This document shows positions 79 to 7,834 of a stretch of 7,834 nt of DNA, piece by piece (within the stretch, counting starts at the first letter, position 1; the number at the start of each line of letters is the position of its first letter). Location: positions 1 to 7,834 of the forward strand of contig JAGACY010000458.1 in assembly GCA_017613855.1 (NCBI GenBank). The letters are read 5' to 3'. The position numbers and the translations under genes were made by a program. The DNA comes from Pseudomonadota bacterium (GTDB lineage: Bacteria; Myxococcota; Bradymonadia; UBA4248). The notes under the pieces are model-generated. The model searched no databases, was not told the origin of the DNA, and worked only from the letters and a program-made list of their open reading frames with translations.

Positions 79-106
79 GGCGTATTGCACCAACGGTGCA
101 ATAGCC
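79..106 (+). repeat. Bulged hairpin repeat, copy A
   Basis: The basal stem GGC (79-81) pairs with GCC (104-106), G82 is unpaired, and TATTGCACC (83-91) pairs perfectly with GGTGCAATA (95-103) around the triloop AAC. This makes 12 base pairs with a single bulged G. Copies B, C and D share the same plan: short basal stem, bulged G, stem beginning TAT and ending ATA, small loop. Their stem sequences differ, so structure seems to be conserved more than sequence. I do not recognise the family. It resembles REP-type palindromes in size and tandem arrangement only. Confidence 0.8.
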
Positions 107-115
107 GGAGCGGCA

Positions 116-147
116 GGGCGTATGGCGGCCGAAGGTCGCCATAGCCC
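116..147 (+). repeat. Bulged hairpin repeat, copy B
   Basis: GGGC (116-119) pairs with GCCC (144-147), G120 is unpaired, and TATGGCGGCC (121-130) pairs with GGTCGCCATA (134-143) through one G-T wobble, closing a GAA triloop. It lies nine bases after copy A in the same orientation, forming a tandem pair. It ends only eight bases before the TATAAT at 155-160, so it occupies the place where a -35 element would be expected. Confidence 0.8.
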
Positions 148-154
148 GACCATA

Positions 155-160
155 TATAAT
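155..160 (+). promoter_or_regulatory. Candidate -10 box TATAAT for kinase 1
   Basis: This is a perfect six-of-six match to the sigma-70 -10 consensus. No good -35 hexamer lies 16-18 bases upstream, because that interval falls inside hairpin copy B, and there is no TG extension. If used, transcription would start near 167 and leave a leader of roughly 95 bases before the ATG at 262. The assignment rests on the single hexamer. Confidence 0.35.
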
Positions 161-231
161 GATGTAAACAGATACGAACGCGTCTACCCCATAATTTGCC
201 CAACCCCATCGCCTGGGGTATAGTCGTAAAG

Positions 232-251
232 AGCGCCATAAGGAGGGCGCT
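232..251 (+). promoter_or_regulatory. Hairpin presenting the Shine-Dalgarno of kinase 1
   Basis: AGCGCC (232-237) pairs perfectly with GGCGCT (246-251), and the eight-base loop (238-245) contains AGGAG, the core of the only strong ribosome binding site near kinase 1. The site lies 15-16 bases before the ATG at 262, longer than usual. The hairpin decides the start: it makes the ATG at 262 much more likely than the in-frame TTG at 196, which would place this site inside the coding region. Whether the loop exposes or hides the site from the ribosome is not decidable by eye. Confidence 0.45.
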
Positions 252-261
252 TTATTTCGCT

Positions 262-2766
262 ATGGTAGGTGTCGTGTCTAATCAGAAATGCCGATTATGC
301 CTAAAGATTAATCCGCCAGGGAGCCGCTTTTGCAATTATTGCGGTAATGACCTGACGTTCTCGATTCAGCCCGATGGACTGCTGCCGCCCGGCGCAATTC
401 TGCGCGGGAGCTACGTCATTGAAAATGTCATTGGCGAAGGCGGTATGGGCGTGGTCTATAGCTGCCATCACAAAACCCTCGGGACGCGCTATGCACTTAA
501 AGTGCTCGACCCAAAACTTGCCAGAATGGACATTCTGCGTCAGCGTTTTTTGGCCGAAGCCAAGATTCAGGCAACCGTGCGGCATCCTCATATTGTGCAC
601 GTGCTCGATGTCATCGACAGCGACAAAGATGGCGGAATTCCTGGAGTTCTGGCGATTGTCATGGAATACGTCGCTGGCGAGGCGCTCGACCAGAAGCTCG
701 AAGCGGGACCGCTGAGCGAGAAAGATGCCGTGTCGTGTGCGCTCGTCGTGCTCGATGCCATTGGGTTTGCGCATCATGCGGGCATCGTCCATCGCGACCT
801 CAAGCCCTCGAATATTATGATTAGCGCCGAAGAGGCCAAAGAAGCGCTCTATCGCGGCGTCAAGGTCATGGATTTCGGCATTGCCAAGCTGCTGCAGGAA
901 CAGGAACAGCGCACGGTAACTGGTGCACACATGGGAACGCTCCGTTACATGGCACCCGAGCAGATCGAAAATGCGCGCGATGTCGATGAACGATCCGATC
1001 TGTATGCCATTGGTTTGTCGCTTTATGAGCTGCTGTGCGGCCGAACGCCGTTCGAAGAATACCGCGAATTTGAGCTCATCAAGGCCCAGATGTCGATGAA
1101 ACCGCCTTCGATGCGTACCTTCCGGAGTGACATTTCGAACCGGCTCGAGGCGATTGTCATGAAATCGCTCGAAAAAGACCGCGCCAACCGTTATCCGAAT
1201 GCCGAGTCATTCCAGCGTGCACTGCTCTCGCTGGGAGGGTACGATGATATTCCGCTCATGCTCAACCCCAATGATGGTGCGGCAATCGTGCCGACTAACC
1301 AAAAATTGCAGAAGAAAATTGAGCGTGCCATTGCCAAGAGCAATGAGGCTGCAGGCGATTCAAAACCAGGCAAAAAAATTCGGAATTCGGCAGCAAAAGT
1401 CAATGTAACCGAAAATCTGCCCAAAGCACTTCAATCGGCAAGACTGGCTTCGCAGTCATCCATGAAAGCTGCTGCACCGTCTGTTGATCCTGTTGCCAAA
1501 ACGGAAGCTTCGGAGCCCAGAAAGGATAAATCCAGACATCATAAGTCGATTGTTCAGATTTCGCGCGAGAAGAAGGCTGCGTCAGCTCCCGGGACTCCGT
1601 CGAGAACTTTTAAACGCAATCCAAGCAGAATTTCTCAGTTGGGAAAAGGCGCAAATTTAAAATCGACTGCCGAAAAACCTTCATCAGAAGATGTATCCAA
1701 GAATGCCAAAAGTGTGGCTGAGAAGCCCGTTTCTTTAGCAAAAGCGAAACCGGTTTCTTCCGAAAATAATAAAAAAACATCGAATCCCAATCAAAAACCT
1801 ATTTCTTCCGATAAGAATAAAAAGACTTCGAATACAAAGAGCAAAGCACCTTCGGGCGAGAACAACAGACGTCCAAGCCCTGGGCAAATGCAGAAAAAAT
1901 CGGCGCAAGCACCCGCACTGCAAGCCAAATCGGCTTCACCTGCACGCAAAAAATCCAATCTCGCGCTTAAACTACTCGTTTTTGCTATCATTGTATTAAT
2001 TGTAGTTGGCTATTTCCTGCGTTCCGGTCATCCGGATGAAGAAACGGCACCGGCAGAAATCATTCAGCCCAAAGATGTCGTTGAAAATGATGATATTGAT
2101 GATGTATCAACATTGCCGCTGAAAATTATTGAAACCCCAACCGGACGCATGACGGTTGTACCGGCTGCACGGCATTGGGTGAGCAATAATAAGAGCGATG
2201 AATTGCATCAAATTGAGCTCAAAGAAGCATTTGCCATCGATCAGGTTGAAGTTTCTTATTATCAATATGAAAAGTGCGTCGATGCCGGGAAATGCCCGCC
2301 GCTTGGTGTAAAACCGGACGATCTCAATCTGCCTGTGACTAATATTGGCTTCGGAAGTGCACAAATCTTTTGTCAGTTCGCACAAAAAACTCTGCCCACG
2401 CGCGAGCAATGGGAGGCAGCTGCACGCTTTGGCGGCGAAATTAATGGTATTACGCATGTCAATGTGACATGTGAAAATATTCATTTTGGGGCGTCATTGC
2501 GAGGCGAATGTAAAGGTAAAAATAGCGCATCCCCCGAAAATGTTTATGCTCGCGTGCAAAGCGGAAATCCAGGCCATATCCTCAATATGCTCGGCAATGT
2601 CCGCGAATGGACTTCGACGCCCGATAAACACGATTCACAAAAAAATATCACAAAAGGCGGAAGCTATTTATCGGATAGATCTGAGATTAATATCAGCGTG
2701 GATACCACGAACCCATTAAACAGTGGTGCCGCTGATTTGGGCTTCCGTTGTATAAAATTGTTATAA
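262..2766 (+). CDS. Membrane-spanning Ser/Thr kinase with zinc ribbon and FGE-fold domain
   Basis: The 834-residue protein is a Hanks-type Ser/Thr protein kinase. An N-terminal zinc ribbon (C10, C13, C24, C27) precedes the kinase domain at about 51-330, with glycine loop GEGGMG 58-63, ATP lysine K80, helix-C E99, HRDLKPSN from H177, DFG 204-206 and APE 231-233; all catalytic residues are present. A Lys/Ser-rich linker (about 345-566) holds three 16-residue repeats. One membrane helix (about 568-586) follows, then an outside domain of the FGE/SUMF1 fold with C672/C678, LPTREQWE at 711, GNVREW at 778, GGSY at 799 and GFRC near the end. The two catalytic cysteines of true FGEs appear replaced by S804 and I809, so this domain probably senses or binds and does not make formylglycine. 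I chose ATG 262; an in-frame TTG at 196 would add 22 residues with no ribosome site. The kinase half is visibly GC-richer than the rest. Confidence 0.93.
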   Translation: MVGVVSNQKCRLCLKINPPGSRFCNYCGNDLTFSIQPDGLLPPGAILRGSYVIENVIGEGGMGVVYSCHHKTLGTRYALKVLDPKLARMDILRQRFLAEAKIQATVRHPHIVHVLDVIDSDKDGGIPGVLAIVMEYVAGEALDQKLEAGPLSEKDAVSCALVVLDAIGFAHHAGIVHRDLKPSNIMISAEEAKEALYRGVKVMDFGIAKLLQEQEQRTVTGAHMGTLRYMAPEQIENARDVDERSDLYAIGLSLYELLCGRTPFEEYREFELIKAQMSMKPPSMRTFRSDISNRLEAIVMKSLEKDRANRYPNAESFQRALLSLGGYDDIPLMLNPNDGAAIVPTNQKLQKKIERAIAKSNEAAGDSKPGKKIRNSAAKVNVTENLPKALQSARLASQSSMKAAAPSVDPVAKTEASEPRKDKSRHHKSIVQISREKKAASAPGTPSRTFKRNPSRISQLGKGANLKSTAEKPSSEDVSKNAKSVAEKPVSLAKAKPVSSENNKKTSNPNQKPISSDKNKKTSNTKSKAPSGENNRRPSPGQMQKKSAQAPALQAKSASPARKKSNLALKLLVFAIIVLIVVGYFLRSGHPDEETAPAEIIQPKDVVENDDIDDVSTLPLKIIETPTGRMTVVPAARHWVSNNKSDELHQIELKEAFAIDQVEVSYYQYEKCVDAGKCPPLGVKPDDLNLPVTNIGFGSAQIFCQFAQKTLPTREQWEAAARFGGEINGITHVNVTCENIHFGASLRGECKGKNSASPENVYARVQSGNPGHILNMLGNVREWTSTPDKHDSQKNITKGGSYLSDRSEINISVDTTNPLNSGAADLGFRCIKLL
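1747..1890 (+). repeat. Three 48-bp tandem repeats in the kinase 1 linker
   Basis: There are three consecutive 48-base units (1747-1794, 1795-1842, 1843-1890), each coding 16 residues of the pattern K-P-[VI]-S-S-[ED]-x-N-K-K-T-S-N. The first two are close and the third has drifted, reading KAPSGENNRRPSPGQM. They lie in the disordered, basic, cytoplasmic linker between kinase and membrane helix. The unit keeps the reading frame, so copy-number change would alter only tether length. Confidence 0.7.
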
Positions 2767-2774
2767 TATGCTTC

Positions 2775-2798
2775 GCCTATGCGGTGCCCGCATACGGC
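2775..2798 (-). repeat. Bulged hairpin repeat, copy C
   Basis: Read on the minus strand, the basal stem is GCC/GGC (2796-2798 with 2775-2777), the G opposite C2795 is unpaired, and TATGCGG pairs perfectly with CCGCATA across a three-base loop (2785-2787). The basal stem is GCC...GGC where the other copies have GGC...GCC, a compensated change that supports selection on the fold. It begins eight bases after the kinase 1 stop codon. Confidence 0.75.
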
Positions 2799-2804
2799 TC
2801 GCCT

Positions 2805-2836
2805 GCGGGCTATTTCGCTGCACGAAATACGCCCGC
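2805..2836 (-). repeat. Bulged hairpin repeat, copy D
   Basis: On the minus strand GCGGGC (2831-2836) pairs with GCCCGC (2805-2810), the G opposite C2830 is unpaired, and TATTTCG pairs with CGAAATA around a five-base loop (2818-2822). This makes 13 base pairs with a single bulge. It stands six bases from copy C in the same orientation, so C and D form a tandem pair inverted relative to A and B on the other side of kinase 1. No T-tract follows on either strand, so a terminator role is not obvious. Confidence 0.8.
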
Positions 2837-3123: not shown

Positions 3124-5508
3124 ATGGATCAATCGGTAACAAATAGTCATTTGGATCTCTCGGAAGACTCTGCTTATGAGAGTACCGTACCATATCTTCA
3201 AAGCGTGAGAAGCCCGCGTGAGTTGGATTCTCAAATTCCAACACCGCCTGCATTGAGTCAAAAGTATCGTTTTATCAAAGAAATCGGACATGGTGCGCAG
3301 GGCAGAATTTATCTTGCTGAACATATCTTCACACATACAAAAGTATCCATCAAACAGTTTAATATACATTCTGTAAAGACCTGGAAAGAATATGATTTGT
3401 TTAAACGCGAAGCTCAGGTATTGGCTTCGCTGCACATCAATGGGGTTGCCCGGTTTTATGAAGCCATCGAAAGACTGGAGGATGAGCCCCCCTGCTCATT
3501 TATTATTCAGGAATTCATTGAAGGTGATTCGCTTCAGACTATGCTTAAACGCGGACATCGCTTTTCGATGGTCGAAATCTGCGATATGATTATGCAAATA
3601 CTGTATATCCTGCACAGTTTGCATAATCATACACCGCCTGTCATTCACAGAGATATCAAGCCTTCAAACCTGATGCTGACACCACTTGAGGGCGGTGGAT
3701 ACCATGTGACGATTATCGACTTTGGTGCTGTTTCAAACCCGCAGATTCAGGGCGGTGGTTCTACTGTTGCCGGTACGTATGGCTATATGCCGCCGGAGCA
3801 GATGACGGGACATACCGTTCCGGCGAGTGATATTTATGCGGTTGGTGCGGTAGCGGTTCAGTTGTTTACCGGAAAAGCGCCTTCCGATTTGGAAGTCAAA
3901 GATTTTAGAATTATCTTTGAACCCGAAATGGAAGACAAACCTCATGCGCTCGTTGCGACATTGCGAAGCATGCTCGATCCGAAGGTAGAAACCAGGCAAG
4001 CCGATATTCGAGAGTTGATTCGTCTGTTTCATCAGTTCAGAGCCAATCAGTTTGAAATTCAGAACAAAAAAACTGAGGAAGTTCATTATGAACCGACTTA
4101 TGAAGAAAAACTCAACAAAGTGAATTTCATTGGTCAGGAAGGCAATCTGGAGTTGTGGGATGGTTTGCCCGATTCGACCAATCGCGATATGATTGCGTTG
4201 TATACCCACTATTTGAAAACACTGTCTGCCAATACGAATCGTGATAATGGTTCTTCAGAAGACGACTATTATGCTTTTGAAGATAAAAAACAGGTTTCAG
4301 CACGCAATAAATCATTTGCCCTGGTCTTATTTTTTATGGCTTTTTGGGGGGCTGTGACGGTATTTTCGCTGTATATCACGAAATTGACAGGCTGGCATGC
4401 CATTCTCTTTATATTCATCATGGGTATTCCCTGTATGATTGTGGCTCTGGTTGAATATAACAGACTAAAAGTCAATCGGACACGGCCTTTTTTGGCGAGT
4501 ATATATCATCATAGAGAATATCGTTCCATTCTCAAGGGGGAGGCTCCTTTATTTCAGGAACTCATTCAATCGGGGCGAAAAGCAATCGCTACGATAGTAG
4601 ATGTCCAGTATATCAATACACCCTCTTACAATGTCGAAGACAATCCTAAAGGGAAATTGCGCAAATTTGCATCGCATCTGGCTTGTCATGATGATCCGGC
4701 TTTTCTGATTCGATATAAATTTAATCCCCCCGATGATGTTCGCAGTGAAGATCTGGTTCATAATTATATTACTTATGGGGAACCGGAATATCATTACCGG
4801 GTGGGGGACAGGCTTCCTGTATTGTATACAATCTATAACAGCTATTTTAACCAGGTTGTCAGCAGCATGCCATTCCCGCTTCCCATTTATGACTTGCGAG
4901 GATTCCATGATATCATCTATAGAAGCTATGCCGTTGATACGCGTCAGGAAGTATTAAAAACCAATTTGTGTTTTGATGTAAAACTGGACTATGTACTGGA
5001 TCAATTAAATCCGGAAATTGCAAACAAATTATGCAGTCTTAATGATATCATTGTAAGGCTTAAGCCCAAAAAAAGTTACAAGGAAAGCGATATTTACCAA
5101 ATAGATCGTGAGCTGTTTTGCTTACATTCGGATAATCCCGAAGTCAATGCCCTGCTTGTTCCATATCATACTTATTATTTGTTTTCCCATAAATTTCATG
5201 AGCTTCATCGCACCATTATGTCCGTTCTTGCAAAGATGGCATTCCCGGAACGCAAGTTCACCGATAAATTGCTGAGCCGCAACAAACCCATTGAAGATGC
5301 CGTCGATGCAATAAGAACTTATTTGTCGCTCAAGCCTCGATCGTATGTTTTGCCCGATTTCGGTGCCATTGCGGAATTATGTCTCGTCTATAACCGTGGA
5401 GCTTTGCCTGACGAGATGGTCAACCTATTATTCCAGGTTCGTGTGGATGGAGATGCAAATCCGGAACTCAGACGCGAGCTTGGTAAGCTAACAGCACCTG
5501 TTCGTTAG
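3124..5508 (+). CDS. Ser/Thr kinase with two membrane helices and unknown C-terminus
   Basis: The 794-residue protein starts with a polar, probably disordered tail (1-46). A Hanks-type kinase domain (about 48-305) follows: glycine loop GHGAQG 55-60, ATP lysine K77, helix-C E96, HRDIKPSN from H175, DFG 199-201, and PPE (223-225) where APE is usual. All catalytic residues are present, so it should be active. After an acidic linker come two hydrophobic helices (about 398-418 and 424-443), which would form a membrane hairpin with both kinase and C-terminus in the cytoplasm. Residues 445-794 match nothing I recognise firmly. The part around 490-600, ending in a GDRLPVLY stretch and then PFPLPI, loosely recalls DUF3592-type beta domains, but this is a guess. 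The start has no evident Shine-Dalgarno; the nearest AAGG is 27 bases upstream. The stop is 114 bases from the stop of the convergent gene. The partner is unknown. Confidence 0.9.
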   Translation: MDQSVTNSHLDLSEDSAYESTVPYLQSVRSPRELDSQIPTPPALSQKYRFIKEIGHGAQGRIYLAEHIFTHTKVSIKQFNIHSVKTWKEYDLFKREAQVLASLHINGVARFYEAIERLEDEPPCSFIIQEFIEGDSLQTMLKRGHRFSMVEICDMIMQILYILHSLHNHTPPVIHRDIKPSNLMLTPLEGGGYHVTIIDFGAVSNPQIQGGGSTVAGTYGYMPPEQMTGHTVPASDIYAVGAVAVQLFTGKAPSDLEVKDFRIIFEPEMEDKPHALVATLRSMLDPKVETRQADIRELIRLFHQFRANQFEIQNKKTEEVHYEPTYEEKLNKVNFIGQEGNLELWDGLPDSTNRDMIALYTHYLKTLSANTNRDNGSSEDDYYAFEDKKQVSARNKSFALVLFFMAFWGAVTVFSLYITKLTGWHAILFIFIMGIPCMIVALVEYNRLKVNRTRPFLASIYHHREYRSILKGEAPLFQELIQSGRKAIATIVDVQYINTPSYNVEDNPKGKLRKFASHLACHDDPAFLIRYKFNPPDDVRSEDLVHNYITYGEPEYHYRVGDRLPVLYTIYNSYFNQVVSSMPFPLPIYDLRGFHDIIYRSYAVDTRQEVLKTNLCFDVKLDYVLDQLNPEIANKLCSLNDIIVRLKPKKSYKESDIYQIDRELFCLHSDNPEVNALLVPYHTYYLFSHKFHELHRTIMSVLAKMAFPERKFTDKLLSRNKPIEDAVDAIRTYLSLKPRSYVLPDFGAIAELCLVYNRGALPDEMVNLLFQVRVDGDANPELRRELGKLTAPVR

Positions 5509-5622: not shown

Positions 5623-6636
5623 TTATGGGTTACATGCCGATTTGTCGTCCTTGCAGCCATTAGAACATTTCTTATGGCCTGCTGATACATAGTAGAGCTT
5701 GCCATCACTTGTTTTTTTGCATTCTCTATAGAATTCATTGTTGTTGACGCATTGTGTAGGGACGATTTCACCTTCGTTCTGGCATGCGTTGTTTTTGGTT
5801 GTGATGCATTTGGCCTGGTCGTCAATGACTAAGCAGGTGAGCGCTTTATTGCAGATTCTTTGCGTGATTCTATCACTTTGGCAATTGAAAGCCGTATTTC
5901 CTTCACAGTAGGGAACGAAATTCGCTTGATCGCATTTATCTCCCTGAATGCATTTTTCGTCGGCAGAGCACATGCCTGTACCATAGTAACATTCGGTCTG
6001 TGAATGTCTTCTCAAATGAAGCACATCACCATTGCGGGATTTTTCACATCGATAGATGATTTCAAATGCTTTCCCCTTTTTATCTGTTTCACAAAACTCA
6101 AAAAGTGCATTTTCTTTATCACAGCTTTCGCCGCCGTGTTTTCCAAGATAATTTTCTGATTCTTCTTGATTTGATTTTCCTTTACTTATTCTATCATGAA
6201 TTCGTTCATATTTATCACCGGCTGATGAACGGTAAAAGAAATCGCCGTTAGTCGTTTTTTCACATTTAAATGTGTGTTTTAGACTTTCTCCTAAACCTAG
6301 AATTGTTTCAACTTTATATGTTGAATTCTCATCATAACATCGTTCTTCTTCTGACATACATTTAGCATAATACAACGCCTGGGCCGCGCCTATTTCAAAT
6401 TCAACGCAAGTTTCGGCGAGTCCGTCGATTCCATGATGACTGCAGTCGCGTGCTTGTACAACGTCTTTTTCACAGTAGAGCAGGATTGTGCCATCGCAAC
6501 TTTCCACAAATGTTTTTTGATCACAGGGGTCCCCTTCCTGGGCTTTAACTCTTTCGGGTTTTGCCTGTGCCATGGAGCATAGCATCAGGAACAGTGCGGT
6601 TATGATAACGATCTGTGCAGGTTGTTTTGTTTTCAT
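5623..6636 (-). CDS. Secreted cysteine-rich protein, unknown family (largest paralogue)
   Basis: The 337-residue protein has a typical signal peptide: basic start, hydrophobic core about 9-22 and AQA before the cut after residue 25. It should leave the cytoplasm. By hand count the mature part has 26 cysteines, an even number consistent with disulfides. It opens with a GDPCD module in which cysteines follow C-x8-C-x7-C-x9-C. A second copy near the middle, starting GDKCD, keeps the same spacing. After each come units ending C-x-K-[ST]-x-x-G-x-x-[YF], the last reading SDGKLYY. The same units occur in the two upstream paralogues. Unlike them it lacks the C-terminal RPKD motif and ends in a short Cys-rich tail. 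I chose ATG 6636 because a good AAGGAG lies seven bases upstream; a TTG one codon earlier is less likely. No enzymatic motif is visible and function is unknown. It is last in a probable three-gene operon. Confidence 0.85.
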   Translation of the reverse strand: MKTKQPAQIVIITALFLMLCSMAQAKPERVKAQEGDPCDQKTFVESCDGTILLYCEKDVVQARDCSHHGIDGLAETCVEFEIGAAQALYYAKCMSEEERCYDENSTYKVETILGLGESLKHTFKCEKTTNGDFFYRSSAGDKYERIHDRISKGKSNQEESENYLGKHGGESCDKENALFEFCETDKKGKAFEIIYRCEKSRNGDVLHLRRHSQTECYYGTGMCSADEKCIQGDKCDQANFVPYCEGNTAFNCQSDRITQRICNKALTCLVIDDQAKCITTKNNACQNEGEIVPTQCVNNNEFYRECKKTSDGKLYYVSAGHKKCSNGCKDDKSACNP

Positions 6637-6643
6637 CAAAAAG

Positions 6644-6649
6644 CTCCTT
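6644..6649 (-). promoter_or_regulatory. Ribosome binding site of the 337-residue secreted protein
   Basis: AAGGAG on the minus strand stands seven bases before the ATG at 6636. This strong, well-spaced site fixes the start at that ATG and not at the TTG one codon upstream. Confidence 0.75.
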
Positions 6650-6703
6650 ATTGGTTTTGATAGTGTGTATCATTAGATTGTCATAGAAAATTCGTCATTG
6701 ATT

Positions 6704-7459
6704 CTAGAATGGCAGATCAATTTGCTTGTCTTTTGGTCGCAGATCCCCTTGTTTTTTCTTTTTGGAGGAAGATGATTTCTTTTTTGAATTTGAAGAAGAT
6801 TTAGATTTTTCTGAATCATCGAATGGCAGATCCACAGTGGTGTCTCTGGGCTTGTTTAAATCTTTGTTTTTGGGTTTGCTAATCTTTGTGACTTTGTAGA
6901 TTAATTCACCATTCGAATTCTTTGCGCAGCGAAACAGCATTGTTTTTGCATTTCCATTTTCACTGACTTGTTCGGATTCAACGTATTCGTTCTCCTTTTC
7001 GCATTTGTCGCCTTGTTTTATATTTTCTCGTTGAATTACTTCAAGCGGTTGTCGGTCAGCGCTGAACTTTTTATAATACAGTTTGCCGCTGGCAGCTTTT
7101 TCGCAGCGCAGGAATTCAGTTTTTTTCAAACCATTAATCGTTTTTTCACGAATGATTTTGTCATTTTCTACATAGCACTGATCTGCTTCGTTTATACAGC
7201 TGACTTTTCCTGAGATGACAAATTCTGCACATGTGTATTGCTGATCGAGTCTTGTCATGGATGCACAATCGTGGGCTTTGACTTTTCCTTTAATACATCT
7301 CATGGCATAATCACCCATGCAAAAACTTTTAAATGATGCAGTGTCGCAGTCATCTCCTGCTTTTGGCTTGGAATTATTCGGAGCAGCAAAGGCAACAGAG
7401 CTCATGAACAGGAGTATGGCTGTACATAAAACTATAAAGACAATCGGATTATTTTTCAT
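6704..7459 (-). CDS. Secreted cysteine-rich protein with Lys/Ser-rich tail
   Basis: This 251-residue protein has a clear signal peptide (hydrophobic core about 6-23, cut after AFA at 25). The mature protein has ten cysteines by hand count. The N-terminal module starts GDDCD and follows C-x8-C-x7-C-x9-C-x11-C-x10-C-x6-C, then a unit ending CEKAASGKLYY; a second, shorter unit ends CAKNSNGELIY. The last third is a Lys/Ser-rich, probably flexible tail between two copies of a short motif: KPRDTTVDLPF and, at the very C-terminus, RPKDKQIDLPF. The DLPF part of both copies comes from an identical 12-base stretch (6707-6718, 6821-6832). The tail could bind an anionic surface polymer, or the end motif could be a sorting signal; both are guesses. 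Both neighbouring gaps, to the paralogue on each side, are 67 bases. Family not recognised. Confidence 0.85.
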   Translation of the reverse strand: MKNNPIVFIVLCTAILLFMSSVAFAAPNNSKPKAGDDCDTASFKSFCMGDYAMRCIKGKVKAHDCASMTRLDQQYTCAEFVISGKVSCINEADQCYVENDKIIREKTINGLKKTEFLRCEKAASGKLYYKKFSADRQPLEVIQRENIKQGDKCEKENEYVESEQVSENGNAKTMLFRCAKNSNGELIYKVTKISKPKNKDLNKPRDTTVDLPFDDSEKSKSSSNSKKKSSSSKKKKQGDLRPKDKQIDLPF

Positions 7460-7468
7460 AGGTAAAGA

Positions 7469-7474
7469 TTCCTT
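7469..7474 (-). promoter_or_regulatory. Ribosome binding site of the 251-residue secreted protein
   Basis: AAGGAA on the minus strand lies nine bases before the ATG at 7459, supporting that start. A small 5-bp dyad, TTCGA-ATGA-TCGAA, sits just upstream in the same 67-base gap. No terminator or clear promoter is visible there, consistent with co-transcription with the gene further right. Confidence 0.6.
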
Positions 7475-7526
7475 CTTGTTCGAATGATCGAAATTTCTGA
7501 AAATGTTTTATGCCGCAATTTGTTGA

Positions 7527-7834
7527 TTAAAACTGCAGCTCAATTGCGGAGTCTTTGGGACGAGGATCCTTGTAAAAATAGTATTGTTTTCCGTCTGATG
7601 CTTTTTGACATTGATAATGCTTGTCAGTTATTCCGTGTTCGGTTTTTTCTTTTCGTGTTATAGTGTCATTTAAATCAGAACATACATCTTTTTTAGAAAT
7701 ACACTGTGCGTATTCTAAATCTGCTGTTTGCATGCATGTTTTGTATTCTGGAATTTTTTGACAATTCACTTTTCTAATTTGGTCGTCAATACATTCTAAT
7801 AAATAATTGCCATTACAGGTGGGTTTAAAGGAGA
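7527..7834 (-). CDS. Cysteine-rich paralogue, 3' part only (runs off the window)
   Basis: This is the 3' end of a gene whose start lies beyond the right edge. The frame stays open to the window end and gives 101 codons. A GTG at 7769 would be a possible start, but the 21 codons before it encode the expected second and third cysteines of the module (SFKPTCNGNYLLEC), so that GTG is internal. The fragment keeps x7 and x9 spacing between module cysteines two, three and four, then x8, x10 and x6, and ends in a unit with CQKASDGKQYY. Its C-terminus, RPKDSAIELQF, matches the end of the 251-residue neighbour. A signal peptide is expected upstream but not visible. It is first of the three visible genes of the probable operon. 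Confidence 0.8.
   Translation of the reverse strand, partial: SFKPTCNGNYLLECIDDQIRKVNCQKIPEYKTCMQTADLEYAQCISKKDVCSDLNDTITRKEKTEHGITDKHYQCQKASDGKQYYFYKDPRPKDSAIELQF

What the first reader, a model, noticed from the sequence alone, without database searches (positions are those of the whole stretch)
79..2836. Four-copy family of bulged-G hairpins with compensated stem changes
Seen directly: copies at 79-106, 116-147, 2775-2798 and 2805-2836 share one plan, namely a 3-6 bp basal stem, one unpaired G on the 5' side, a 7-10 bp stem starting TAT and ending ATA, and a 3-5 base loop. Inner stems differ (TGCACC, GGCGGCC, GCGG, TTCG) yet each is matched by its complement, and copy C swaps the basal GGC/GCC for GCC/GGC. 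Such compensation suggests that the fold is what is kept. I know no named element with exactly this signature. REP/REPIN palindromes are the nearest analogue, but they conserve sequence more.
Basis: partly seen in the sequence, partly recalled or inferred. Interest (0 to 1): 0.75.

Follow-up and report, generated by a model that had tools for sequence, protein, structure and literature searches.

The report
Strand-specific bulged-G hairpin repeat family
A group of gut myxobacteria carries hundreds of short DNA hairpins that keep one bulged G and their fold while their stem letters change freely, and copies on the same DNA strand keep several thousand bases apart, which points to a little-known single-stranded DNA signal.

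Summary
The window holds two same-strand hairpin pairs, A+B (+) and C+D (-), flanking a kinase-FGE gene. The family is large. Strict copies run at 16-20 per 100 kb in four sampled relatives, about 620-810 per genome by extrapolation. 8 of 9 genomes of the order carry it. The core is C-[G]-TAT...ATA-G; 7 of 10 modelled pairs change on both sides. Mismatches are tolerated mainly on the bulged-G strand (inner stems 35 versus 6 mirror types), G.T is rare, and orientation is nearly random to genes. This favours folded single-stranded DNA over RNA. Same-strand sites avoid each other: pairs under 4 kb are 13 same-strand, 76 opposite. Against the nearest relative 3 of 116 hairpin bases changed, versus 42% of fourfold sites. 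It resembles REP elements and attC sites but fails defining tests of both. My leading, unproved reading is a site of a strand-specific ssDNA recombinase or a domesticated relative. No partner protein was found.

The parts
79..106 (+). Hairpin A: basal GGC/GCC, bulged G82, inner TATTGCACC/GGTGCAATA, loop AAC
   Evidence: same in L001:1556-1583 but for one loop base
116..147 (+). Hairpin B: basal GGGC/GCCC, bulged G120, inner TATGGCGGCC/GGTCGCCATA (one G.T), loop GAA. Second member of the + pair; 14 nt lie between ATAG of A and CGTAT of B
   Evidence: in L001 two substitutions, both giving G.A
2805..2836 (-). Hairpin D (first of the minus-strand pair): basal GCGGGC/GCCCGC, bulged G opposite + base 2830, inner TATTTCG/CGAAATA, loop TGCAG (or 8 bp with a T.G pair and a 3-nt loop)
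   Evidence: identical in L001:4280-4311
2775..2798 (-). Hairpin C (second of the minus-strand pair): basal GCC/GGC, bulged G opposite + base 2795, inner TATGCGG/CCGCATA, loop GCA; 13 nt between ATAG of D and CGTAT of C
   Evidence: identical in L001:4250-4273
262..2766 (+). Protein kinase with C-terminal FGE-sulfatase domain, the gene lying between the two hairpin pairs (context, not part of the element)
   Evidence: Pfam PF00069, PF03781 on 268-2766; 92.6% aa identity to L001, fourfold-site divergence 155/367

Best explanation
A high-copy family of extragenic sites that act as folded single-stranded DNA on the strand carrying the bulged G. Each unit is one hairpin, or two in the same direction with about 14 nt between ATAG and CGTAT. 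The readable signal is the bulged G between a nearly invariant C-G pair and T-A, A-T, T-A pairs; the rest of the stem only has to pair. Most likely the sites are, or descend from, recognition ends of a strand-specific ssDNA recombinase, working like IS200/IS605 ends, REPs or integron attC sites, with a dimer reading the two hairpins. Two units on one strand inside one stretch of exposed ssDNA would be cut out together with the genes between them, so only well-spaced same-strand units survive; opposite-strand units do not see each other. Shown: family, core, covariation, strand asymmetry, dimer geometry, same-strand exclusion, long conservation in place. Inferred: ssDNA rather than RNA, protein recognition, and excision as the cause of spacing.
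For: Core and covariation. Strand asymmetry of tolerated mismatches: inner stem purine-type 35 versus mirror 6 (p 5e-6), basal pairs 2-3 43 versus 2, same direction in every gene context. G.A is as frequent as G.T (16 and 15) and G.T is only 15 of 1950 variable inner pairs, against G.U 33 of 418 pairs in 19 tRNAs of the sampled contigs. Orientation at the nearest gene end is even: 67 into, 66 away at stops; 31 and 23 at starts (187 of 293 clusters, the rest lying in ORFs of a simple caller or at edges). Close dimers: of 130 multi-hairpin clusters 116 are same-strand pairs, 9 same-strand triples, 5 mixed; linker 14 nt in 73 of 131 neighbouring pairs. Same-strand exclusion: pairs of sites under 4 kb 13 same versus 76 opposite, 32.0 same expected by within-contig shuffles, P 0.0005 (the floor of 2000 shuffles). 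Alternation is seen in G001, G002, G005 and G145 separately (39/17, 35/16, 17/4, 51/22); nearest-neighbour alternation (0.710) is explained by same-strand spacing alone (circular-shift null 0.688, sd 0.021). Precedent: for some attC pairs with the folded strand on the lagging-strand template, excision falls with distance, and a like effect is stated for IS608 (PMC5371416, passages). TnpAREP and TnpA of IS200/IS605 bind ss hairpins strand-specifically and contact the loop or stem irregularities (PMC8266576, passages).
Against: No partner enzyme: Y1_Tnp is not found in G005 and G145, both rich in hairpins, and is present in G126, which has none; RAYT not found in 4 of 8 carriers; no integron integrase above cut-off. 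The two sites of the window kept place and nearly every base at fourfold divergence 0.42-0.47, which looks like host function rather than mobility. No excision footprint or clean empty site was seen; the one present/absent site differs by about 300 nt, far more than the hairpins. In PMC5371416 the length effect held only for part of the constructs, and no sharp drop at 500-800 bp was seen. The spacing could equally be a functional requirement. The tRNA control says nothing on G.A because ARAGORN brackets standard pairs only. Opposite-strand sites under 400 nt are not random in order (-+ 16, +- 1), which this model does not explain.
Confidence: 0.42

Rival explanations
1. Host-function DNA sites: the chromosome uses these strand-addressed hairpins, for example for replication restart or primosome loading, a Chi-like signal or nucleoid organisation, and needs a unit every several kilobases on each strand (median same-strand gap 7.4 kb). 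Spacing is functional, not the result of deletions.
For: Near-complete conservation in place between the window and L001 (3 of 116 hairpin bases changed; fourfold sites 0.42). Orientation kept in 6 of 6 sites that I took as orthologous between G004 and G005, although some stems changed. A unit of score 24 or more lies within about 2 kb upstream of rpsL in 8 of 8 genomes. Same-strand regularity, strands independent of each other.
Against: Sites come and go between close species, one orthologous hairpin has a broken core (L028), and the rpsL-flank unit differs in orientation between genomes. No known protein or process with such a signal. Only a small excess on the G-rich strand (185 versus 143 hairpins, clusters not independent).
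Confidence: 0.28
2. RNA elements: mRNA or antisense-RNA hairpins (3'-UTR stabilisers, terminators or protein-binding sites) read from the bulged-G strand.
For: Hairpins fold very stably as RNA. Clusters lie mostly between genes, most densely between convergent genes: 64 clusters for 161 gaps, 136 for 523 codirectional, 31 for 152 divergent. The mismatch asymmetry demands one functional strand.
Against: Orientation is not tied to the neighbouring genes; between codirectional genes 80 clusters are antisense and 56 sense, so most of those would not lie on the transcript. G.T is rare and no commoner than G.A. Flanks of the pairs on the bulged-G strand are A-rich on both sides, not U-rich. No Rfam match at the gathering score.
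Confidence: 0.12
3. Classical REP/RAYT elements of an unrecorded family.
For: Number, size, extragenic place and a stem irregularity match REPs. RAYT-type genes over cut-off in 3 of 9 genomes, weaker matches in 2 more. Of 14 Y1 loci in carrier genomes 6 hold hairpins, and in 3 of these the cluster is a triple, a form that is 11 of 292 clusters overall.
Against: No invariant 5' tag; close dimers direct, not inverted; RAYT not found in 4 of 8 carriers and matched in the non-carrier G126; the L061 and L064 RAYTs sit beside a different repeat, seen in translation. Six clusters in about 39 kb of Y1 loci is no more than the general density would give (about 7 to 8 at 19.4 per 100 kb).
Confidence: 0.08
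4. Mutational relics: palindromes kept alive by template-switch (quasi-palindrome) correction, without function.
For: Stem lengths change symmetrically between orthologues (L022 versus L021).
Against: Such correction would remove the bulge, yet the bulge is G in 262 and A in 3. The core CGTAT...ATAG is kept, and mismatches are strand-asymmetric.
Confidence: 0.05

Closest known systems
REP / BIME / REPIN elements with RAYT (TnpAREP); GTAG and CGTC super-families (PMC3733652, PMC8266576; abstract, passages and two sections of the first, passages of the second)
   Same: Hundreds of copies of short extragenic palindromes per genome, often dimers, many downstream of genes; the E. coli REP stem carries a required bulge; TnpAREP reads the ss hairpin on one strand.
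   Different: No invariant 5' tag; stem sequence free; close dimers head-to-tail (the paper calls head-to-tail dimers negligible in CGTC families); no RAYT found in half of the carriers; same-strand exclusion.
Integron attC sites (PMC5371416, passages)
   Same: Recognition by ssDNA fold with extrahelical bases rather than by sequence; strand-specific; distance between sites can matter for excision.
   Different: No invariant AAC/GTT at fixed places in our profiles; no IntI above cut-off; not cassette arrays: intervals of kilobases, core genes among them.
IS200/IS605 (IS608, ISDra2) transposon ends and their non-autonomous derivatives
   Same: Hairpins read on one strand, with an unpaired or mismatched stem base contacted by TnpA (PMC8266576, passages); both ends in direct orientation (recalled).
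   Different: IS608 uses an unpaired T; here G, with no transposase between; Y1_Tnp not found in two carrier genomes.
Chi and similar strand-specific chromosomal signals (recalled, no call)
   Same: About a thousand copies per genome, read on one strand.
   Different: Linear octamer without a fold; no hairpin.

Membership tests
REP (GTAG/CGTC super-families) | Unpaired GTAG or CGTC-type tag at one end of the hairpin | tested here: not met
   Flank profiles show no invariant tetranucleotide: among 37 copies with a basal stem of exactly 3 bp the best 5' flank column is A 27 of 37 and the best 3' column G 30 of 37
REP (GTAG/CGTC super-families) | High-copy 20-40 nt extragenic palindromes | tested here: met
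   16-20 strict copies per 100 kb in four genomes; 234 of 292 clusters scored as intergenic, 42 in ORFs, 16 at contig edges
REP (GTAG/CGTC super-families) | Dimers in inverted (HH or TT) order | tested here: not met
   Two-hairpin clusters 116 direct, 3 mixed; but opposite-strand sites under 400 nt do occur, -+ 16, +- 1
REP (GTAG/CGTC super-families) | Cognate RAYT in carrier genomes | tested here: not met
   NF047646 has no match at E<=1e-5 in G002, G005, G006, G145; matches in non-carrier G126 below its cut-off; the assemblies are drafts of unstated completeness
IS200/IS605 ends | Bulged hairpins in direct orientation on one strand | tested here: met
IS200/IS605 ends | Y1 HUH transposase in the genome | tested here: inconclusive
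   PF01797 in 7 of 9 genomes, not in carriers G005 and G145
IS200/IS605 ends | Cleavage sites with guide tetranucleotides | not tested
   needs cleavage data or clean empty sites
Integron attC | Conserved AAC/GTT cleavage box (letters recalled; PMC5371416 states 3 conserved nucleotides) | tested here: not met
   Only CGTAT/ATAG is invariant or nearly so in the profiles
Integron attC | Integron integrase IntI | tested here: not met
   TIGR02249: 0 of 9 genomes over the cut-off; 8 of 9 have weaker matches, as do all 14 control genomes
Intrinsic terminators | U-run after the hairpin, oriented with the upstream gene | tested here: not met
   A-rich on both sides of the bulged-G strand; orientation at stops 67 to 66
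Rfam families | Match to a curated covariance model | tested here: not met
   0 at gathering score; at E<=5 one 9.2-bit RgsA match against a gathering score of 88.4

The most novel reading that the evidence does not exclude
A new class of chromosomal signal: hundreds of fold-defined, nearly sequence-free single-stranded DNA addresses, each valid on one strand only and spaced by an exclusion rule acting within but not between strands, used by the host through a protein not yet known.
Probability: 0.25. Interest if true: 0.88.

Novelty: new variant of a known kind. Interest (0 to 1): 0.72.

Why it matters
It is a natural family in which selection on a folded strand can be read from hundreds of copies per genome: one bulged base and four pairs fixed, everything else free but paired. 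The within-strand exclusion is a genome-scale trace that no paper listed by my searches describes in its title or abstract start, and it makes a simple prediction about exposed single-stranded DNA in living cells. If a binding protein is found, the family would give a new fold-specific ssDNA reader, and a way to ask whether REP-like repeats are selfish or useful.

Tried and rejected
RAYT/REP membership: rejected on tag, dimer order and RAYT distribution. Integron attC: rejected on integrase and core. Terminator or mRNA element: rejected on orientation and flanks. My first idea that units are paired brackets around genes ([+ gene -]) came from alternating orientation (lag 1 opposite 142, same 59). 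It was dropped when shifting one strand against the other reproduced the alternation (0.688 versus 0.710) and when no pointing towards the nearest gene was found (98 into, 89 away). Recent horizontal spread of the flanked kinase was dropped because fourfold divergence is alike inside (0.42) and outside (0.47).

Controls: reversed sequence gave 0 with the strict scan, but with my relaxed score it gave 136 hits at threshold 24 and 0 at 28, against 560 and 444 in the family, and 0 in the outgroup at 20 and above. I set the reversed control aside because reversal keeps palindromes, and show the spacing result at both 24 and 28. The per-genome shuffle over-counts the expectation at short range, because close opposite pairs can be relabelled as same; one search repeats the pooled test without that fault. 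Dropped rows: mixed-orientation sites (number not printed; 19 of 309 at threshold 24), L045 (overlaps L148), and one G004/G005 block at 76% identity left out as a likely paralogue (same orientation). Partner-sequence similarity: the +- pairs gave p 0.008 in one of four tests, not followed up. Plasmid collection: no match. Script runs that failed: (an all-N locus), repeated; the tRNA part, repeated.
Full report
WHAT IS THERE. The window carries two pairs of hairpins. A (79-106) and B (116-147) lie on the + strand; D (2805-2836) and C (2775-2798) lie on the - strand and, read on that strand, come in the order D, C. Each has a basal stem, one unpaired G, an inner stem opening TAT and closing ATA, and a short loop. 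The pairs flank a gene for a protein kinase with an FGE-sulfatase domain (Pfam). Folding z-scores are -3.2 to -5.0. No Rfam family reaches its gathering score in the window, and lax scans of the two sites gave one weak chance-like match.

THE ORGANISM. No genome is held for the window. A scan of genome contigs with the second kinase gave 42 loci, all titled Myxococcales or 'Proteobacteria' MAGs, several with ruminant-gut names. L001 (UBA4248) is syntenic, 84% identical in that kinase.

THE FAMILY. In 43 sequences (the window and L001-L042) 106 of 440 single-bulge hairpins are bulge G plus TAT; the next class has 7. In contig samples the strict form occurs 85 times in 518 kb (G001), 38 in 194 kb (G005), 80 in 400 kb (G145) and 65 in 400 kb (G002), and 0 times in 256 kb of G126 (lengths include some masked N). 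In 140 genomes drawn from the phylum only G001 and G002 match at E<=1e-4 (stricter filters, 52 candidates scored per genome). In 57 genomes of the class 5 match at the very strict E<=1e-8, all of this order; weaker copies elsewhere in the class are not excluded by that call.

THE SIGNAL. The innermost basal pair is C-G in 104 of 106 copies. In a census of TAT...ATA stems on both strands, a single 5' bulge is G in 262 and A in 3, 22 stems have no bulge, and 281 have no basal stem within the allowed offsets. The 225 with a 3' C bulge are the same hairpins read from the other strand, and the 33 with a 5' C bulge look like the other strand of copies with a 2-bp basal stem, by my reading. T-A, A-T, T-A follow by the scan's definition. 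Beyond that, 7 of 10 modelled pairs change on both sides, all 270 cells pair, and no shuffle of 500 reaches the covariation score (the 27 copies were picked as well-paired ones of one length, so the 100% is partly by choice). In 433 copies of a slightly relaxed scan, mismatches in the inner stem are G.T 15, G.A 16, G.G 4, A.A 0 against their strand mirrors A.C 3, C.T 1, C.C 1, T.T 1 (35 to 6, p 5e-6). In basal pairs 2-3 the count is 43 to 2. So the fold of the bulged-G strand is what matters. G.T makes up 15 of 1950 variable inner pairs, against 33 of 418 in 19 tRNAs of the sampled contigs. ARAGORN's brackets list only standard pairs, so the G.A side of that control is empty by construction. 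In the window's own relative both changes in hairpin B turn a pair into G.A.

UNITS AND PLACES. Of 292 clusters 162 are single, 119 double and 11 triple. Doubles are 116 direct and 3 mixed; of the triples 9 are direct and 2 mixed. Between ATAG of the first and CGTAT of the second hairpin there are 14 nt in 73 of 131 neighbouring pairs; the window has 14 and 13. Flanks of the pairs are A-rich on both sides of the bulged-G strand. Clusters: 136 between codirectional genes (80 antisense, 56 sense, p 0.048), 64 convergent, 31 divergent, 3 mixed-orientation, 42 inside ORFs of a simple caller, 16 at contig edges. In the contig sample not chosen by a gene, orientation relative to the nearest gene end is even: 67 into and 66 away at stops, 31 and 23 at starts; 93 of 293 clusters fell inside called ORFs and were left out.

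SPACING. Neighbouring clusters alternate in orientation: 142 opposite, 59 same, repeated on other contigs (26 to 11 at threshold 20, 21 to 13 and not significant at 24, 21 to 8 at 28). Over all pairs the opposite share is 0.75-0.86 from 1 to 4 kb and 0.36-0.60 beyond. Shifting all minus sites against plus sites leaves alternation at 0.688 (sd 0.021) against the observed 0.710, so the strands are independent and the rule acts within a strand. With mixed sites dropped and anything within 500 nt merged, pairs of sites less than 4 kb apart are 13 same-strand and 76 opposite (289 sites); shuffling labels within contigs expects 32.0 same, P 0.0005, the floor of 2000 shuffles. At the stricter threshold the numbers are 8, 62 and 23.9. 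Opposite-strand sites closer than 400 nt are almost all in the order - then + (16 to 1), which I cannot explain.

EVOLUTION IN PLACE. Between the window and L001, 3 of 116 hairpin bases differ (1 in A's loop, 2 in B, none in C or D) while fourfold sites differ at 155/367 in the flanked kinase and 121/257 in the next gene. The similar values speak against a recent transfer of the flanked gene. In six sites that I took as orthologous in the close pair G004/G005 the orientation is the same in all six; stems differ in some yet still pair (second hairpin of L028/L024; L022/L021; L195/L194) and are unchanged in others (L215/L214, L208/L207); the first hairpin of L028 has lost its core while L024 keeps it. 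One site is present in G005 and absent in G004. Upstream of rpsL a unit of score 24 or more lies within about 2 kb in 8 of 8 genomes (G002 24, G003 26, the others 28 or more), not always in the same orientation; inside the rpsL-rplQ stretch only hits of score 21-24 were seen.

PARTNER. Y1_Tnp matches occur in 7 of 9 genomes but not in carriers G005 and G145. RAYT (NF047646) matches occur in 4 of 8 carriers and in the non-carrier. Of 14 Y1 loci in carriers (about 39 kb) 6 hold a cluster, about what the general density gives, but 3 of the 6 are triples, which are rare elsewhere; I did not follow this. Two RAYTs lie in ORFs with their own, different repeats (L061, L064). No integron integrase reaches its cut-off. 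All these assemblies are drafts, so absences are soft.

READING. The strand asymmetry, the scarcity of G.T, the indifference to gene direction and the within-strand exclusion fit folded single-stranded DNA read by a strand-specific protein. Direct dimers with a bulged base recall IS200/IS605 ends; freedom of stem sequence recalls attC sites. For some attC pairs with the folded strand on the lagging-strand template, excision falls with distance (in one construct from 1.17e-3 at 60 bp to 5.25e-5 at +3000 bp), and the authors state a like effect for IS608; the effect did not hold equally for all constructs (PMC5371416, passages only). If same-strand units can be excised together with what lies between them, selection would leave the pattern seen. 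That step is inferred. The strong conservation of the window's own sites argues that some units serve the host, and a purely functional spacing is a close rival. REP facts were taken from PMC3733652 (abstract, passages, sections 6 and 14) and PMC8266576 (passages). No paper describing this family showed up in the listings, which cover open-access PMC papers only.

Noticed in passing
L209:8202-8280, L210:2836-2915, L214:13430-13610 and others of G002, G003, G004, G005, G146: In a sub-group the bulged hairpin is embedded between G-runs and followed by a hairpin of G-run, short loop and C-run, so that two G-runs could compete for one C-run.
   Followed up: no
Sampled contigs: Opposite-strand units within 400 nt are ordered - then + in 16 cases and + then - in 1.
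   Followed up: partly
L052, L055, L061: Three Y1-transposase loci have a triple hairpin cluster close by; triples are 11 of 292 clusters elsewhere.
   Followed up: no
L061, L064: RAYT-like domains lie in frame in long ORFs beside translated repeats of the type AGVSPA..SARAGRP; the L061 ORF looks like a DNA methylase of a restriction system (by eye).
   Followed up: no
L049 and L050: Nearly identical small IS200-type transposases in two different genomes (G004, G002), suggesting recent transfer (by eye).
   Followed up: no
Sampled contigs, examples (place not noted): A long perfect palindrome TATTATGTAAACTCG-ttta-CGAGTTTACATAATA; its arm resembles the XerD half of dif (recalled).
   Followed up: no
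L194:2110-2500 (G005): Tandem repeats of about 56 nt (counted by eye) upstream of the rpsL operon, lacking in the G004 orthologue.
   Followed up: no
window 5623-7832, minus strand: Three Cys-rich secreted-type ORFs in a row (the last one cut by the window end); the two complete ones have 55% and 46% aa identity to L001, while the kinases keep 84-93%.
   Followed up: partly
window 3585-3631: Perfect 14-bp inverted repeat inside the second kinase gene.
   Followed up: no
L026 versus L023: Alignment of two close species is broken by kilobase-scale length differences near hairpin sites; too few sites to test whether breaks favour hairpins.
   Followed up: partly
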